This document shows, piece by piece, positions 47,504-56,184 of a stretch of DNA of 64,000 nt. Position numbers and translations under genes: made by a program. Origin of the DNA: Sinomonas mesophila (GTDB lineage: Bacteria > Actinomycetota > Actinomycetes > Actinomycetales > Micrococcaceae); assembly GCF_001999765.1 (NCBI RefSeq), contig NZ_MTIC01000008.1, forward strand, positions 124,001 through 188,000, read 5' to 3'. Within the stretch, counting starts at the first letter, position 1. Each line of letters begins with the position of its first letter. The notes under the pieces were generated by a model. The model was not told where the DNA came from. It did no database searches and was given only the letters and a program-made list of their open reading frames with translations.

Positions 47504-47800
47504 GGAAACCCTCAGCGGCTGGCGGCGCCTTCACGCCAGCGGCCGGGGGCGCCGCGTTCGTGTGCGACGCCGCGGATCGCGCGCGGGCCCCGGGCACCTT
47601 GAAGTGCCTCCTTACGCCGCGAATCGATTACTCGCTCACGCCGCCGGGGCCGGTCCCTCCTGCCGCTCATCGCGAGCATGAAGGCCTGGGCCGAGGAGAA
47701 CATGGAGGCCGTCGCCGACTCCCGGCTCGCCACCGACCGCACCCGCATGGCCGGCTCCGCCAACTGACGCAGGGAGAAGCCGACAGACAGGGCCGGCGCG

Positions 47801-47912
47801 GATGGGCACCGGTTTCGTTGTGAGACCGGTGCCTGGCTGCGAGACCGGGGTCTTTCCAACCTGTCTCGCAGGGACGGACCTGTCTCGGCCCGAGACAGGC
47901 CCCTTCCGTTGA
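47801..47912. repeat. Triple-hairpin repeat, family D copy 1
   Basis: Three stems in order: GGCACCGGTTTC with GAGACCGGTGCC; GCGAGAC with GTCTCGC; and CCTGTCTCGG with CCGAGACAGG around a single C. All involve the theme GAGAC/GTCTC. Confidence 0.9.
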
Positions 47913-47948
47913 GCGGCCGGGCGGCGACACCGCCGGACGGGCCGCCGC

Positions 47949-48060
47949 GGATGGGCGCCGGTTTCGTTGTGAGGCCGGCGCCTCGCTGCGAGACCGGGGT
48001 CTTTCCAACCTGTCTCGCGGCGACGGACCTGTCTCGGCCCGAGACAGGCCCCTTCCGCCC
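47949..48060. repeat. Triple-hairpin repeat, family D copy 2
   Basis: A direct repeat of copy 1 after about 148 bp, about 90 percent identical by eye. The first stem shows compensatory changes (GGCGCCGG with CCGGCGCC instead of GGCACCGG with CCGGTGCC), which supports a paired structure. The stretch CGAGACCGGGGTCTTTCCAA is unchanged. Confidence 0.9.
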
Positions 48061-50700: not shown

Positions 50701-50730
50701 CCCTGCGCGGTTATCCGCGCGCTGCGCGGT

Positions 50731-50833
50731 TTGGCACCGGTCTCGCCACGAGGCCGGTGCCTTGCTGCGAGACCGCCGCGGAGCCGACCTGTCTCGCGGG
50801 GAAGGACCTGTGTCGGGCGGGACCGGTCCTTGC
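50731..50833. repeat. Triple-hairpin repeat, family D copy 3
   Basis: GGCACCGGTCTC pairs with GAGGCCGGTGCC, GCGAGAC with GTCTCGC, and a third weaker stem AGGACC with GGTCCT lies around a diverged CTGTGTCGGG. It follows the racemase gene by 30 bp, so the permease-racemase pair is bracketed by family D copies. Confidence 0.85.
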
Positions 50834-50856
50834 CGTTCTCTGGCAGCCCACAACCA

Positions 50857-50911
50857 GGTTTCTCCAAACGATGGACTGCGCCTTGGTTTCTCCAGTCGAT
50901 GGATTTAGACT
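50857..50911 (+). promoter_or_regulatory. Promoter with two 19-bp direct repeats before the sigma-like operon
   Basis: GGTTTCTCCAnnCGATGGA occurs at 50857-50875 and 50885-50903, 28 bp apart, differing only at the two middle bases. Each contains TCCA and TGGA as a small inverted repeat. The second copy overlaps the promoter TTGGTT (50883-50888), 17 bases, TAGACT (50906-50911), which lies 24 bp before the ATG at 50936. This looks like a dedicated control region. Confidence 0.7.
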
Positions 50912-50935
50912 GGAGGCCTACCTGCGAGGTGCACC

Positions 50936-51586
50936 ATGTGCGAAGTGCCCAAACGCCATGTCCTGGCCGCCATTCGCCCCGCGCGCGTCCTGATCGCCGC
51001 GGCGGGAATCGCCGCGATCGCCGCGGGCTGGTTCGTGCCCACGCTCCTCTCCGCAGTCCCGATCGGCGCCGGCGCGCTGGTCCTCCTCGCCGCGGCCCTG
51101 CCGGCGGTGCGGGACGTCGAGCTCGGCCTGCCCGGAGACATCCGGCTCTCGGCGGCCCTCGCCGGCCGGCAGACGGACATCGCCTCCGTGTTCGAGCAGC
51201 AGCGAGGCGACCTCCAGCTGTGCGCCCAGCTCCTGTGCGGCGATCCTGAGCAGGCGAAGGCCCTCCTCGAGGCCGCGTGGGCCCGCACCGCCGAGGTGTG
51301 GCGCGGCCCCGTCACCCCGCAGCTGCGCCTCTACACCCTGTGCGTCCTCGTGCACCTGCTCGACCGGCAGGACCGCTGGGGCCCGGCAAGGAAGCCCAAG
51401 CACCCCAAGACGCTCCTGGCCGCGCTCCCCGCCGGCGAGCGCATCGTCGTCGTGCTCCACGACTTCGCCTCCCTCACCATCGCCGAGATCGCCGGGCTCA
51501 CGGAGAGCACGACGACGGCGGTCACCGAGCGCCTCGAGCGCGCCAACGAGAGGGCGCAGCTCGCGCTGGGGAGCGGGCAGCCGTGA
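50936..51586 (+). CDS. Membrane-anchored sigma-factor-like protein
   Basis: A 216-residue protein that joins two N-terminal membrane helices (about 16-34 and 37-57) to a cytoplasmic part resembling ECF sigma factors. Residues about 85-145 are helical and similar in place to region 2, though weak. Residues about 160-208, LPAGERIVVVLHDFASLTIA through ERLERAN, fit a region 4 helix-turn-helix. It could be a tethered transcription factor released by proteolysis, or a sigma-like fold used for protein contact. Its stop overlaps the next gene by four bases. I know of no characterised protein with this order. Confidence 0.75.
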   Translation: MCEVPKRHVLAAIRPARVLIAAAGIAAIAAGWFVPTLLSAVPIGAGALVLLAAALPAVRDVELGLPGDIRLSAALAGRQTDIASVFEQQRGDLQLCAQLLCGDPEQAKALLEAAWARTAEVWRGPVTPQLRLYTLCVLVHLLDRQDRWGPARKPKHPKTLLAALPAGERIVVVLHDFASLTIAEIAGLTESTTTAVTERLERANERAQLALGSGQP

Positions 51587-52635
51587 ACACCGACCTGCGC
51601 CAGCTGCTCTACGCCGAGGCAGTCGAGTTGGCCGAGCGGCACCCGGCGGACCTCGACCGGTCGGTGGCCCTCGGGCAGCAGCGGCTGCGCTCGCGCCTGT
51701 CCCTCGTCAGCGTCCTGACGGCCGTGCTGGTGCTCGCCGCGGCGGCCACGCTCGTCGTCGTGCGGCTCCTGGGCGCGGGCGAGGGCCCAGGGCCCGCGAC
51801 GGTCGTCGGCGTCGCCGTCACCGCGCCCGGGCACGCGCTCGAGCTGGGCACCCGCGTGCAGGCCACGGCGACTGCCGCGCTGAGCGACGGCGGCTCGCGC
51901 GTCCTCGGGGGCGGGGTCGTGTGGGCGAGCGCGGACCCCGCCGTCGTCGCTGTCGACGGCGCCGGGCTCGTGACCGCCGTCGGCCCCGGCACCGCCGAGG
52001 TCACCGCCGCGTTCGGCGGGCACAGCGGATCGGCCGCGTTCGCCGTCGCCGGAGGGCCGACGCCGAGCCCGACGCCGCTGCCCCACATCGTCGCGCTGCG
52101 CGTCGACCCGGACTCCCTGACGGTCGAGGCGGGGACGACGGGCACGATCAACGCGCACTTCATCTACAGCGACGGCTCGTCGGCGGCGCCAGCGCACGCC
52201 GAGTGGTGGTCGTCGGACCCCACGGTCGCGACCGTGGCGGCGCAGCCGAACGGCGGGGCAACCGAGACCGCCATCGCCGCGGGGACCGCGAAGATCACGG
52301 CCCTCGCGAGGGACGAGGCGGGGACGGCCTTCACGGCGACCGCGACCGTCACCGTCAACCCGCCCGCCGTCGTGCGCATCACGATCTACCCGCCCGAGCT
52401 GCCGATCCTCTACGCCGGGGACAAGCCCGTCAAGCTCACCGCCACGGTCGTGTACCGGGACGGGACGAGCGGGGAGAGCGACCTCGTCGCCTGGGCATCG
52501 ACGGACAACGGCATCGCGCACGTCGACAGCCGCGGCTACGTCTACCCCGAGGGCCACGGCACGGCAACGATCACCGCCGCGCTCGGGGACGTCACGAGCC
52601 CGCCGGTCACCGTCACCGTCAAGCAGATCTACTGA
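51583..52635 (+). CDS. Single-pass membrane protein with three BIG2-type Ig-like domains
   Basis: A 350-residue protein starting at a GTG that overlaps the upstream stop (GTGA). Residues 1-40 are a cytoplasmic helical segment that could contact the sigma-like protein as an anti-sigma domain would. One membrane helix spans about 44-64. The extracellular part has three bacterial Ig-like (BIG2) domains, seen as VVWASADPAVVAVDGAGLVTA with GTAEVTA, EWWSSDPTVATV with GTAKITA, and VAWASTDNGIAHVDSRGYV with GTATITA. Proline-rich linkers separate them. The layout is that of a membrane sensor or adhesin. Confidence 0.82.
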   Translation: MNTDLRQLLYAEAVELAERHPADLDRSVALGQQRLRSRLSLVSVLTAVLVLAAAATLVVVRLLGAGEGPGPATVVGVAVTAPGHALELGTRVQATATAALSDGGSRVLGGGVVWASADPAVVAVDGAGLVTAVGPGTAEVTAAFGGHSGSAAFAVAGGPTPSPTPLPHIVALRVDPDSLTVEAGTTGTINAHFIYSDGSSAAPAHAEWWSSDPTVATVAAQPNGGATETAIAAGTAKITALARDEAGTAFTATATVTVNPPAVVRITIYPPELPILYAGDKPVKLTATVVYRDGTSGESDLVAWASTDNGIAHVDSRGYVYPEGHGTATITAALGDVTSPPVTVTVKQIY

Positions 52636-52673
52636 CCTCGCACCCATCACCCACCGAATGAGAGGAACCAGCA

Positions 52674-53621
52674 ATGACAACGACACCAGAACTCGTCGAC
52701 GATCCGCACGGCGCCGTCTCCAACGAACCCGAGGCCCTCGGCGAGGAGACCGTCACCCAGCCGATGGCCGAGGAGCCGTCAACCGGCTCGAACGGCGAGG
52801 CCTCGGGGGATCTCGAGGACGACGGCGCCGAGCCGCTTCCCGGGGCCCGCCTGGCGGAGCTCGCCCCCGAGCCGTCGTGGGTCGTGCCCGAGCTCGACCT
52901 GCCGGACATCGGCGAGGCGTCCTTCGGCACCCCGGCGGCGCTGCCGGAGACGGTCCACGGGCCGGACGACCGGGTCCAGATCTCGCCCGCGAACACCTAC
53001 CCGTGGCGCGTCCACGCCTCCCTCCTCATCACGGCCGCGGACAACTCGCTGTGGATCGGGACGGGCTGGTTCATCGGCCCGCACACGCTCATCACGGCCG
53101 GGCACGTCGTGTTCATCAAGAACAGCGGCGTGCCGGGCCGGGACGGGTGGGTCAAGAAGATCCAGGTGATGCCGGGCCGCGACGGCTCGTCCCTGCCCTA
53201 CGGCTCGGTCACAAGCACGAGCTTCCGCTCGGTCAAGGGCTGGACCGTTTCCGGGAGCGAGAACTACGACTACGGCGCGATCATCATCCCGACCGAGCTC
53301 GGCACCTCGACCGGCTGGTTCGGCTATGGCGCGTACACCGACGCGGACCTGCTCAGCGTGACGGCGAACATCTCGGGCTACCCGGGCGACAAGCCGTCCG
53401 GGACGCAGTGGTACGCGGCCCGGAAGGTCGCGTCGGTGGGGCCGCGCAAGGTGCGGTACGACATCGACACGGCCGGCGGGCAGAGCGGCTCCGCCGTCTA
53501 CCGGATCAAGTCCGGCGGGAGGTACGGCATCGCGGTCCACGCGTACGGCGGGGCGACGACGAACTCTGGCACGCGCATCACGGGCCCGGTGTTCGACAAC
53601 TTCAAGGCGTGGAAGGCGTAG
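52674..53621 (+). CDS. V8-like (glutamyl endopeptidase type) serine protease without signal peptide
   Basis: A 315-residue trypsin-fold protease. The catalytic triad is His144 in LITAGHVV, Asp199 in NYDYGAI and Ser271 in GGQSGSAV, spaced as in S1B peptidases. The N-terminal 100 residues are acidic, Pro/Glu-rich and disordered, and might be a propeptide, since VQISPANTYPWR near residue 101 resembles a mature start. No hydrophobic signal sequence precedes it, so the enzyme should stay in the cytoplasm unless exported otherwise. AGGAACCAGCA lies before the ATG, 38 bp after the BIG2 protein stop. Confidence 0.85.
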   Translation: MTTTPELVDDPHGAVSNEPEALGEETVTQPMAEEPSTGSNGEASGDLEDDGAEPLPGARLAELAPEPSWVVPELDLPDIGEASFGTPAALPETVHGPDDRVQISPANTYPWRVHASLLITAADNSLWIGTGWFIGPHTLITAGHVVFIKNSGVPGRDGWVKKIQVMPGRDGSSLPYGSVTSTSFRSVKGWTVSGSENYDYGAIIIPTELGTSTGWFGYGAYTDADLLSVTANISGYPGDKPSGTQWYAARKVASVGPRKVRYDIDTAGGQSGSAVYRIKSGGRYGIAVHAYGGATTNSGTRITGPVFDNFKAWKA

Positions 53622-53635
53622 CGCACACTGGTCCC

Positions 53636-53911
53636 ATGCCTGCCCTGCTCACCGGCCGGGTGACCGACGACGGCGGCGCCCCGCTCGCGCTGGCGAGTGT
53701 CGCCGTCGTGCGCGCCCCGGTCCCCATGCCGGACATTGCGGCCCTCACCGACGCCGATGGCCGCTTCACGCTCACCGCGCCCGCGCCCGGCGAGTACGAG
53801 GTGGGCGTGAGCGCGGACGGCTTCGAGCGCACGACGGCGGAGGTCACCGTCGGTGGCGACGGCGAGGCCGCGCTGGAAATCCGGCTGCGGCGCGCGTCCC
53901 CCGGCAGCTGA
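53636..53911 (+). CDS. Small carboxypeptidase-regulatory-like beta domain protein
   Basis: A 91-residue protein consisting of one CarboxypepD_reg/transthyretin-like beta-sandwich: LTGRVTDDGGAPLALASVAV, ALTDADGRFTLTAPAPGEYE and VGVSADGFERTTAEVTVGG. It has no signal peptide or membrane helix, like the protease before it. It starts 15 bp after the protease stop, so it should be in the same transcript. In known proteins this domain is appended to peptidases or receptors; here it may be a separate inhibitor, substrate or adaptor of the protease. Confidence 0.8.
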   Translation: MPALLTGRVTDDGGAPLALASVAVVRAPVPMPDIAALTDADGRFTLTAPAPGEYEVGVSADGFERTTAEVTVGGDGEAALEIRLRRASPGS

Positions 53912-54050
53912 CTTTCGCCGGCTCACCCGAGCCGCGTTCGCGATCGGCGCGGCCCGTTAGGCGCGGACGAGGGCCCGCAGCGCCTCGTCCCATGCGAAGC
54001 CGGCGCGGGGTGTCCTCGATGACCGCGCCGGCGCCAAAAGGGGTCTAAGG

Positions 54051-54227
54051 TCAGCGACCCCAGAACGGCATGATGATCACCAACAGCAGCAGCCATGTGA
54101 ACACGATGGCCCTGCCGGACGGAAGCAGTGTCCTGTTCCGGGCCGCGCGCTCATTGATCTCCGCCAGATTCTTTTCGAAGTTGGCGCGCCGCTCGGGCGT
54201 CCAGTACTCCTCTTGCTCGGGGGTCAT
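54051..54227 (-). CDS. Small single-helix membrane protein
   Basis: A 58-residue protein with a charged N-terminal helix (YWTPERRANFEKNLAEINER) and one C-terminal membrane helix (AIVFTWLLLLVIIMPFW). I do not recognise it. The start at 54227 has GAGGAG seven bases upstream and overlaps the stop of the preceding gene (ATGA), so the two are coupled. Its function is unknown; the shape resembles short toxin-like or accessory membrane peptides, without further support. Confidence 0.65.
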   Translation of the reverse strand: MTPEQEEYWTPERRANFEKNLAEINERAARNRTLLPSGRAIVFTWLLLLVIIMPFWGR

Positions 54228-54550
54228 GCTGTCTCTCCTCTCATCGTGAACGTGTGCAACCATTCCGCGAGGCCCGCTGGCTGTGCCGCTGTGAAAGTCG
54301 TCGTCGTTCGGATTCGTTCAATGTCCCAAAGGGATTTCCATGCGGGCGCGGGCGCGGCGGGTGTCAGCAGCCCGAGCGCGGCGATCGCCGCGATGCGCGG
54401 GGGTGGGGCTCGAACGGACAGTCCAAGGCCACGTGAACACCTCATGATGAGGAAGAAGACCGCAAGGATGAACCACGCCCTGCGCCCCCTCACGCTGCTC
54501 CTTGTCTGCGCAGCCAGCATCTCCTCGACGGTAGTCGGGTAGCGCTTCAT
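54224..54550 (-). CDS. Small membrane protein, partner of the 58-residue protein
   Basis: A 108-residue protein. The N-terminus MKRYPTTVEEMLAAQTRSSV is polar, followed by a hydrophobic segment (about 26-37), a basic stretch and a second Ala/Leu-rich segment (about 53-70). No family is recognised. ATG 54550 is the best start, although the purine-rich GGGAGGAG is 13 bases away. The stop overlaps the next start by four bases. The pair forms a minus-strand mini-operon convergent with the protease operon. Confidence 0.5.
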   Translation of the reverse strand: MKRYPTTVEEMLAAQTRSSVRGRRAWFILAVFFLIMRCSRGLGLSVRAPPPRIAAIAALGLLTPAAPAPAWKSLWDIERIRTTTTFTAAQPAGLAEWLHTFTMRGETA

Positions 54551-54784
54551 GGTCAGATGATCGCTCCTCCCACCGACAGTTCTCGGGCACGAGAAGGCAC
54601 GCGGCCGAGTACCGGGTTCTTCCTTGTGCGGAGAAGTGCGGTCGTCAGGCATTCCGAACCCACGTGTGTGAAGGTCAGGGCCATCTACCGCTGACAGAAT
54701 CCCCGCCGAATAGCGCTCGCCGCGTCCGCGGTGCTCGGCACGGTCGTTGGCGGGCGGCTCACGGGGCTCCTGGCCCGGGTCTGA

Positions 54785-54868
54785 GTGACCCTGCAGCGCA
54801 GGAACGTGACCCCGCATCGCAGGAAGGTGACCCCGCAACGCAGGAAGGTGACCCCGCAACGCAGGGAG
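54785..54868 (-). repeat. Array of 4 units of 21 bp, family B, right copy in inverted orientation
   Basis: Units start at 54785, 54806, 54827 and 54848. On the plus strand the core reads TGACCCCGCAA followed by CGCAGGAAGG, the reverse complement of the family B core at 42350-42486. With the left copy it brackets a 12.3-kb segment. Confidence 0.95.
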
Positions 54869-54876
54869 GTGCGGCT

Positions 54877-54882
54877 TAGGCT
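54877..54882 (+). promoter_or_regulatory. TAGGCT -10 box, leaderless-type promoter
   Basis: TAGGCT is followed by GGGCGC and the ATG at 54889. It abuts the family B array, whose last unit would overlap the -35 position. Confidence 0.5.
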
Positions 54883-54888
54883 GGGCGC

Positions 54889-56184
54889 ATGAGTGCACCG
54901 GAGCGGACGCGCGTGGCGGTGGTGGGCGGCGGGCCCGCGGGCATGGTCCTGGGGCTGCTGCTCGCGCGGGGCGGGATCGACGTCGTCGTGCTCGAGAAGC
55001 ACGCCGACTTCCTGCGGGACTTCCGCGGCGACACCGTCCACGCCTCGACCCTGACGCTGCTCGACGAGCTGGGCCTCGCGACGGCGTTCGGCCGGCTGCC
55101 GGCCAGGCTCCTCGACCGCGCAGAGATCCGGCTCGACGCCGGCACCGCCCGCCTGACCAACCTCGGCGCGTCCATACCCGGGCGGCACCGCGGGATCGCG
55201 CTCGTGCCGCAGTGGGACTTCCTCGAGATGCTCGCGAGAGCGGCCGAGGAGGAGCCGTGCTTCACGCTCGTCCGCTCGGCCGAGGCGGTGGGCCTGGCGC
55301 ACGACGGCGCGCGGGTCGCCGGGGTTCGCTGGCGCGAGTACGTCCCGGGGGCGGGGGCCTCGCCGGGCGGGGCGCAGCGGGAGGTCAGGACCCTCGCCGC
55401 GGACCTCGTCGTCGCGTGCGACGGGCGCGGGTCCGCAGTGCGGGACGCGGCGGGCCTCGTGGCCCGGCGGTTCGGCGGGGCGATGGACGTGTGGTGGTTC
55501 CGGCTCCCGCGCCGCGAGGGCGATCCGGCCGGCGGGATCGGGCGGCTCTCGAGCGGGTCCTTCCTCATCAGGATCGACCGGGGCGACTACTGGCAGTGCG
55601 GCTACGTCATCCCGAAGGGTGCCGATGCCGAGCTGCGGGCCGAGGGCATCGAGGCGTTCCGCGAGCACGTCGCCAGGCTCGCCCCGGAGATCGCGGACCG
55701 GCTCAGTGAGGGGCCCCGGTCGATGGACGACGTCAAGCTCCTCGACGTGCGCATCGAGCGCCTCCCGCGCTGGCACCTGGACGGGCTCCTGTGCCTCGGC
55801 GACGCCGCGCACCCGATGTCCCCGGTGGGCGGGGTGGGCATCAACCTCGCGATCCAGGACGCCGTCGCGGCGGCGCGGATCGTCGGCGGGCGGATGCGCC
55901 GGCAGGCGGGGCCCGTCCCCGAGTCGGTGCTCGCCGCCGTCCAGCGGCGGCGGTGGTGGCCGACGGCGCTCCTCCAGGGGTTCCAGCGGATGGCCTACGC
56001 GCTCGTCGTGCGCAGGGCCCTGGGACGGAAGGACCTCCCCCGGCGGGAGCCGCGCGGGATGCCGCTCCCGCTGCGGCTCCTCACGCGATTCCCGGCCCTG
56101 CAGCGCTTCCCCGCGTACTTCGTCGCGATCGGGCCCCGGCCCGAGCATGCGCCGGAGTGGGCCCGGCGGCCCGAGCCGCTCTGA
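54889..56184 (+). CDS. FAD-dependent aromatic-ring-hydroxylase-type monooxygenase
   Basis: A 431-residue flavoprotein of the p-hydroxybenzoate hydroxylase/UbiH superfamily. The FAD motif VAVVGGGPAGMVLGLLLARG opens the protein, the DG motif is VVACDGRGSAVRDAAGL at about residue 180, and the second FAD motif is LGDAAHPMSPVGGVGINLAIQ near residue 300. These enzymes hydroxylate or epoxidise aromatic or isoprenoid substrates using NAD(P)H and O2. No pathway genes are adjacent, so the substrate is unknown. It follows the family B array and a leaderless-type promoter. Confidence 0.92.
   Translation: MSAPERTRVAVVGGGPAGMVLGLLLARGGIDVVVLEKHADFLRDFRGDTVHASTLTLLDELGLATAFGRLPARLLDRAEIRLDAGTARLTNLGASIPGRHRGIALVPQWDFLEMLARAAEEEPCFTLVRSAEAVGLAHDGARVAGVRWREYVPGAGASPGGAQREVRTLAADLVVACDGRGSAVRDAAGLVARRFGGAMDVWWFRLPRREGDPAGGIGRLSSGSFLIRIDRGDYWQCGYVIPKGADAELRAEGIEAFREHVARLAPEIADRLSEGPRSMDDVKLLDVRIERLPRWHLDGLLCLGDAAHPMSPVGGVGINLAIQDAVAAARIVGGRMRRQAGPVPESVLAAVQRRRWWPTALLQGFQRMAYALVVRRALGRKDLPRREPRGMPLPLRLLTRFPALQRFPAYFVAIGPRPEHAPEWARRPEPL

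What the first reader, a model, noticed from the sequence alone, without database searches (positions are those of the whole stretch)
50857..53911. Four-gene operon joining a tethered sigma-like protein, a BIG2 receptor, a cytoplasmic V8-like protease and a small beta domain
Seen: a promoter overlapped by two copies of GGTTTCTCCAnnCGATGGA, then four tightly spaced genes. The first has two membrane helices plus a region-4-like helix-turn-helix; the second is a single-pass protein with three BIG2-type domains; the third has a full His144/Asp199/Ser271 triad but no signal peptide; the fourth is one CarboxypepD_reg-like domain. Known: sigma/anti-sigma pairs are often switched by proteolysis of a membrane protein. 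Inference: extracellular binding through the BIG2 protein could trigger the protease to free or destroy the tethered sigma-like domain. It also lies inside the repeat-bounded accessory segment, where defence or conflict systems often sit.
Basis: partly seen in the sequence, partly recalled or inferred. Interest (0 to 1): 0.8.

Follow-up and report, generated by a model that had tools for sequence, protein, structure and literature searches.

The report
Two unrelated gene pairs, side by side
What looked like one four-gene signalling operon is two independent gene pairs placed end to end in one genome: a membrane-bound sigma-factor look-alike with a cell-surface partner, and a widely traded intracellular protease with a small partner that in some other microbes sits near suspected conflict genes.

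Summary
The anatomy is right, but the four genes are not one system. Genes 1-2 (P1-P2) are adjacent in all 9 P1 loci found (7 of 15 genus genomes, one in another family, one in Arthrobacter sp. StoSoilB13); 8 of the 9 have no genes 3-4 nearby. Genes 3-4 (P3-P4) occur in 1 of 15 genus genomes, this one. P3 relatives lie in 41 public loci from seven phyla; P4 follows in 35 of 41, P1-P2 in none. P3-P4 looks horizontally acquired.

P1 is more than a region-4 HTH: behind a two-helix membrane hairpin it carries a whole ECF-type sigma2-sigma4 architecture with eroded contact residues and exactly four invariant cysteines; the pair has its own conserved promoter/dyad. Likely mode (inferred): a tethered sigma mimic controlled by P2's short cytosolic tail.

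P3 is an intracellular V8-like protease (triad 42 of 42) with a conserved Glu92 where the mature enzyme should start, so probably a zymogen. Some relatives are fused to or neighbour subtilases, STAND NTPases, PLD proteins or an EAD1 protein, suggesting a conflict-type proteolytic module, although 17 of 23 actinobacterial loci matched none of the four neighbour models. Functions are inferred; nothing was tested at the bench.

The parts
50857..50875 (+). Upstream copy of the 19-mer GGTTTCTCCAnnCGATGGA
   Evidence: not seen by eye in the 140 nt upstream of P1 in the six other genus genomes
50885..50911 (+). Conserved promoter/dyad of P1: GGTT..TCCA-N5-TGGA followed after 2 nt by a -10-like TAGACT
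   Evidence: pattern TCCANTCGNTGGANNTANANT with up to 1 mismatch: 7 sites in 15 genus genomes, 5 of them just upstream of P1, 0 for the reversed control; also upstream of P1 in L104
50936..51586 (+). P1: two-helix membrane hairpin + degenerate ECF-type sigma2-sigma4 domain; four invariant Cys (2, 96, 101, 136)
51583..52635 (+). P2: ~40-residue cytosolic N-terminus, one TM helix, three BIG2 domains; partner of P1
52674..53621 (+). P3: intracellular V8/glutamyl-endopeptidase-like serine protease, predicted zymogen (Glu92|Thr93), catalytic H144-D199-S271
53636..53911 (+). P4: single cytosolic CarboxypepD_reg-type beta domain, conserved partner of P3
52636..54888 (.). Stretch present here but absent between P2 and the FAD-monooxygenase gene in G006, G007 and G012: the presumed inserted P3-P4 module plus about 1 kb

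Best explanation
Two independent two-gene modules stand in tandem. Module A (P1-P2), shown: a co-inherited pair with its own conserved promoter/dyad. Inferred: P1 is an ECF sigma factor turned membrane protein, with a two-helix hairpin holding a sigma2-sigma4 domain on the inner face of the membrane. P2's short cytosolic tail grips or releases that domain (as CnrY or NepR grip theirs) when its BIG2 stalk senses wall or surface state. Because polymerase- and promoter-contacting residues are eroded, P1 more likely acts as a protein-binding sigma mimic (PhyR-like) than as a freely released sigma factor. Module B (P3-P4), shown: a widely distributed V8-like protease without a secretion signal, catalytic triad intact in 42 of 42, usually followed directly by a CarboxypepD_reg domain. 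Inferred: P3 is made as an inactive zymogen cut after Glu92 to give the new N-terminus that V8-type enzymes need; P4 is its regulator (holding, folding or targeting it). The pair works in a stress- or invader-triggered proteolytic cascade, since some relatives are fused to subtilases or occur beside STAND NTPase, PLD and EAD1 genes. In this genome module B was acquired and landed behind P2, so the two may share a transcript, but no functional link is shown.
Confidence: 0.6

Rival explanations
1. One reading: BIG2 ligand binding activates the cytoplasmic V8-like protease, which frees or destroys the tethered sigma-like domain; all four genes are one system.
For: Same strand, tight spacing (4-nt overlap, 38 nt, 14 nt), one conserved promoter ahead of the first gene; protease predicted cytosolic, the same side as P1's domain.
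Against: 0 of 8 other P1-P2 loci carry P3 or P4, and 0 of 41 P3 loci carry P2 (one weak P1-model match, L067, E 0.0015). P3-P4 persists across phyla in loci without P1-P2.
Confidence: 0.05
2. P1 is a working, membrane-stored ECF sigma factor: a signal through P2 or intramembrane proteolysis releases sigma2-sigma4, which transcribes its own promoter.
For: Complete sigma2-sigma4 architecture. A promoter/dyad that, at up to 1 mismatch, is found mostly upstream of P1 itself (5 of 7 sites in 15 genomes; also in Arthrobacter sp. StoSoilB13) is what ECF autoregulation looks like. Membrane-fused ECFs exist: IutY, ECF48/52/53, ECF36 (passages of PMC8999054).
Against: Region-2.2 Asp/Gln lost in 9 of 9 and the basic residue of the sigma4 recognition helix in 8 of 9. 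The conserved site reads as a dyad beside an ordinary -10, i.e. a normal promoter with an operator; it is not evident in G350 and degraded in G005 and G012.
Confidence: 0.25
3. P3-P4 is an ordinary intracellular maturation protease with a chaperone or substrate partner, with no role in conflict; neighbours in some lineages are incidental.
For: 12 of 16 Streptomyces loci match none of the four neighbour models; no PADLOC family fits well.
Against: Fusion to subtilase in two phyla, and P3 as first gene of AAA-STAND operons in Bacteroidota and Paractinoplanes, grouping with a P4-bearing relative at 99/94.
Confidence: 0.3
4. P4 is the target rather than the regulator: P3 cuts P4 (or a P4-bound client) to release an effector.
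For: Co-inheritance in 35 of 41 loci and correlated divergence; in nuclease-protease pairs the neighbouring gene is the substrate (PMC12799240, part 1 of 6 of the text read).
Against: P4 is a single small beta domain with no catalytic family in Pfam above its cut-off, and the STAND-type loci L073-L077 keep P3 without P4.
Confidence: 0.2

Closest known systems
ECF sigma factors with membrane extensions (IutY/ECF243, ECF48, ECF52, ECF53, ECF36)
   Same: Sigma domain covalently tied to membrane helices (passages of PMC8999054)
   Different: Those listed there have C-terminal anti-sigma fusions, or (some ECF36) N-terminal 3-4 helices with DUF2275; P1 has a bare N-terminal two-helix hairpin, eroded contact residues, four invariant Cys and a separate BIG2 partner
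PhyR-NepR-EcfG partner switch
   Same: A sigma-like domain that mimics a sigma factor; PhyR and NepR-bound RpoE are among P1's structural matches
   Different: PhyR is a soluble response regulator; P1 is membrane-anchored and no receiver domain was found
CnrH-CnrY-type ECF/anti-sigma pairs
   Same: Layout of P2: short cytosolic tail + one TM helix + outer domain, encoded next to the sigma-like gene (CnrY's layout is recalled)
   Different: No sequence relation shown; P1 itself is in the membrane
V8 / glutamyl endopeptidases (1p3c and relatives)
   Same: Sequence match over the catalytic domain, catalytic triad, aligned mature N-terminus
   Different: Those are secreted (recalled); P3 has no signal peptide, a conserved N-terminal extension with an HTxVSN-like motif, and a P4 partner
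Trypsin-containing conflict systems (NucA-trypsin-subtilisin, VMAP, iSTAND) and nuclease-protease pairs of Avs/Hachiman/Lamassu
   Same: Trypsin-fold protease as cascade element, with subtilase, STAND or EAD1 links (PMC7159879 and PMC8195603 passages; PMC12799240)
   Different: No NucA, MBL nuclease, MoxR-vWA or Trypco among the seven window genes scanned; neighbours of the other P3 loci were scanned only in part. The constant partner is a CarboxypepD_reg domain

Membership tests
ECF sigma factor (P1) | sigma2 + sigma4 domains | tested here: met
ECF sigma factor (P1) | Core-polymerase contact motif in region 2.2 (Asp..Gln) | tested here: not met
   Asp and Gln each in 8 of 10 own-genome ECFs, 0 of 9 P1. 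That this motif is the contact is recalled knowledge
ECF sigma factor (P1) | Directs transcription | not testable with these tools
   needs in vitro transcription
TIGR02983 SigE family (P1) | Curated score 141.55 bits | tested here: not met
   35.3 bits; none of the 16 matches in the own genome reaches it either
Anti-sigma factor (P2) | Cytosolic domain that binds the sigma-like partner | not testable with these tools
   Only layout and co-inheritance seen; no co-fold possible
V8/glutamyl endopeptidase (P3) | Catalytic His-Asp-Ser and S1 His | tested here: met
   42 of 42 for H144, D199, S271, H289; assignment of H289 to S1 is recalled knowledge
V8/glutamyl endopeptidase (P3) | Secretion signal | tested here: not met
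   no hydrophobic stretch in the first 60 residues in 42 of 42 (L069 and L072 are pieces cut from fusions)
V8/glutamyl endopeptidase (P3) | Cleaves after Glu; activated by N-terminal processing | tested here: inconclusive
   Glu92 in 40 of 42, aligned to the start of the 1p3c chain; needs an assay
Nuclease-protease pair (Tuck et al. 2025) | MBL-fold nuclease gene upstream, protease fused to HamA/Avs1a/LmuA | tested here: not met
   none among the seven window genes scanned between 48288 and 56181; P3 is not fused
Known anti-phage system | PADLOC model match | tested here: not met
   P1, P2, P4 none; P3 only LmuA E 0.013 and PDC-M35A 0.024; PADLOC copy of 2023
CarboxypepD_reg (P4) | Pfam PF13620 above cut-off | tested here: met
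   62.3 bits against 32.3

The most novel reading that the evidence does not exclude
P3-P4 is the core of an undescribed intracellular proteolytic conflict module shared by bacteria and archaeal bins: a Glu-specific V8-like zymogen gated by a CarboxypepD_reg partner, plugged into subtilase, STAND-PLD or EAD1 effectors in different lineages. P1-P2, next to it by chance, is a new class of membrane-embedded sigma mimic with a four-cysteine redox or metal switch and a BIG2 surface sensor.
Probability: 0.35. Interest if true: 0.75.

Novelty: new variant of a known kind. Interest (0 to 1): 0.5.

Why it matters
It removes an attractive but unsupported protease-sigma circuit. It leaves two testable objects: a sigma-like domain permanently tied to the membrane with a surface-exposed partner, and a compact, widely exchanged intracellular protease pair that may be a trigger element of bacterial immune cascades. 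In the listings of the eight paper searches made and the passages read I saw no description of either pair; subscription papers, the main ECF classification paper (not held), supplements and preprints were not searchable, so this is weak evidence of absence.

Tried and rejected
Rejected: one four-gene system (no co-occurrence). Rejected: P1 as a lone region-4 HTH (sigma2 part found). Rejected: the short dyad TCCANTCGNTGGA alone as a regulon marker: 38 sites in 15 genus genomes against 42 for the reversed control. Only with the -10 spacing does it mark P1. The two other sites (G004, and G012 contig 32) were read as 401-base stretches only; what genes they serve was not worked out.

Led nowhere: PDB sequence search with the P1 profile, best E 0.058, SigR region 4 only. 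Viral contigs hold 3 distant P3 relatives at 26-38% identity. Plasmids hold 3 P3 relatives at E 1e-30 or better, best 48.9%. Class-wide samples of 394 genomes found P1 (E 1e-12) and P3 (E 1e-70) only in the own genome; most genomes had only 5-7 candidates scored, so this is no proof of absence. The order sample gave P1 in 2 of 396, own genome included. Consensus promoter/terminator scan: nothing on the plus strand. The 53905-54060 stretch folds only slightly better than shuffles, z -1.96.

Corrected: one search compared P1 with an ECF alignment that held three wrong-strand rows (L087, L088, L090); one search repeats it cleanly, and only that is used. In one search my gene finder missed P1-P2 in L104; supplies them. 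Because of that miss, absence of P1-P2 and P3-P4 from each other's loci was rechecked in six frames, and the report uses that result.
Full report
WHAT IS THERE. The window region holds four plus-strand genes behind a duplicated 19-mer: P1 50936-51586, P2 51583-52635, P3 52674-53621, P4 53636-53911. The 19-mer pattern occurs exactly twice in the genome, both here. P1 has a hydrophobic hairpin and P2 one membrane segment; P3 and P4 have none, nor do their 41 and 35 relatives within the first 60 residues (the L069 and L072 rows are pieces cut from fusions).

ARE THE FOUR GENES A UNIT? No. In the genus sample P1 is in 7 of 15 genomes including this one. In all six others the next gene is P2, and neither P3 nor P4 is near. 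A further P1-P2 pair lies in a genome of another family (G350, locus L083) and one on the 1.35-Mb plasmid of Arthrobacter sp. StoSoilB13 (L104), again without P3-P4 in the 15.0 and 12.7 kb examined. So P1-P2 are adjacent in 9 of 9 and P3-P4 follow in 1 of 9. P3 has matches in 12 of 295 genomes of the family, but the full-length kind is only in the own genome. The other 11 have matches at 30-41% identity to parts of residues 79-312, some with secretion-signal-like starts. P4 is in 1 of 15 genus genomes. In G006, G012 and G007 the P2 stop and the called FAD-monooxygenase start are 45, 29 and 4 nt apart, while here 2.25 kb lie between them. No exact direct repeat of 9-20 bases joins 52561-52700 with 53901-54950, so the edges of the insert are not defined. 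The simplest reading is a horizontally acquired P3-P4 inserted behind P2.

THE P3-P4 MODULE. A scan of 84,980 species genomes with P3 gave 41 loci from Actinomycetota (23), Pseudomonadota (6), Bacteroidota (6), Nitrososphaerota (2), Chloroflexota (2), one cyanobacterial and one Acidobacteriota bin. Many are binned contigs, which can be misassigned, and the scan only sees relatives that share one of six short peptides. A P4 homolog stands directly behind P3 on the same strand in 35 of 41; the six without are L069 and L073-L077. P3 and P4 pairwise distances correlate (r 0.65, 630 pairs, 0 of 2000 permutations as high); shared species history contributes to this. In six frames over these loci (615 kb), P2 and its N-terminus have no match and P1 one weak match (L067, E 0.0015). 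Catalytic residues are in 42 of 42, Glu92 and an N-terminal His12 in 40 of 42 each. The best solved relative is glutamyl endopeptidase 1p3c, whose chain residue 3 aligns with P3 residue 95. This places the mature start at Thr93, right after Glu92, which is why I predict a zymogen cut by itself or by a protease of the same specificity. That V8-type enzymes need this new N-terminus is recalled knowledge.

NEIGHBOURS OF RELATED P3 GENES. Five loci (L073-L077) have an AAA protein and a ~900-aa STAND-type NTPase behind P3, four of them with a PLD protein between (Pfam was run on L073 and L076). L069 and L072 fuse P3 to a subtilase-like part. Models built from three such proteins each match subtilases in 10 of 41 loci (L055 and L058 only weakly, in 1103-aa proteins), STAND in 6, AAA in 5, PLD in 5 (three matches per model are by construction). 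Spirosoma L079 carries P3-P4, two more trypsin-like genes, STAND and PLD; Caldilineaceae L071 carries a matrixin-EAD1 gene behind P3-P4; Nitrososphaerales L054 has thermolysin and clostripain genes nearby. PADLOC matches the L073 PLD protein to DrmC and the L050 subtilase to its subtilase and IetS models, but not L073's P3, AAA or STAND proteins. In the tree the STAND-type P3s group with the P4-bearing L071 (99/94), so the two contexts are related. Against this, 17 of 23 actinobacterial loci match none of the four models, and of ten further neighbours scanned four gave no Pfam family and four gave an AMP-binding, an alanine-dehydrogenase-like, a VWA and a phage-integrase gene. Published conflict systems use trypsin-fold proteases, including one with NucA and subtilisin domains (passages of PMC7159879 and PMC8195603), and pro-nucleases of nuclease-protease pairs are activated by proteolysis (PMC12799240; abstract, outline and first of six parts seen). 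None has the CarboxypepD_reg partner in what I read.

HOW IT LIKELY WORKS. Shown: two co-inherited pairs, a membrane-anchored protein with ECF-like architecture, an intact V8-like protease without a secretion signal, a promoter/dyad mostly confined to P1. Inferred: P2's tail binds P1's sigma-like domain; P1 acts by binding a protein partner (mimic) rather than promoters; P3 is a zymogen; P4 regulates P3; P3-P4 serves a stress or invader response. Roughly: two modules 0.93; ECF-like fold of P1 0.9; mimic rather than active sigma 0.55; zymogen 0.7; P4 as regulator rather than substrate 0.6; conflict-type role 0.5.

NOVELTY. Each pair is a variant of known kinds: membrane-extended ECFs (passages of PMC8999054) and trypsin-fold conflict proteases. 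Neither pair was met in the search listings. The claimed four-gene circuit is not a real unit, which lowers the interest; the two pairs keep it at a middle value.

Noticed in passing
47790-47908, 47939-48057, 50718-50836: A ~119-nt palindrome-rich repeat flanks the permease-racemase genes just before P1; 19 matches on 8 contigs of the own genome, so it is a dispersed REP-like element rather than the border of a special island.
   Followed up: partly
54785-54871: Array of 4.1 copies of a 21-bp unit right upstream of the FAD-monooxygenase gene, in the stretch absent from relatives. A similar-looking GTGACCCTCAGG array stands upstream of P1 in G011.
   Followed up: no
54051-54263 (minus strand): Small ORF of 58-70 aa with a hydrophobic C-terminus in the extra 1 kb behind P4; not searched.
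   Followed up: no
50936-51586: P1 has exactly four Cys (2, 96, 101, 136), invariant in 9 of 9 orthologs, all predicted cytosolic: possible metal or thiol switch.
   Followed up: partly
L105 7470-9555: On a Tropicibacter oceani plasmid a P3-like protease gene overlaps an M23 peptidase gene and sits among three radical-SAM genes, looking like a peptide-modification cluster.
   Followed up: no
L050 9330-10909, L040 2655-4248: Next to P3-P4 a subtilase is paired with an 82-aa gene that looks like a detached propeptide or inhibitor; Pfam found no family for the L050 copy, the L040 copy was not scanned.
   Followed up: partly
L041 5575-6411: A phage-type integrase gene lies just upstream of P3-P4 in a cyanobacterial bin, consistent with mobility.
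   Followed up: no
L067 2804-3742: Weak match (E 0.0015) to the P1 model about 4 kb from P3 in Streptomyces dioscori; not examined.
   Followed up: no
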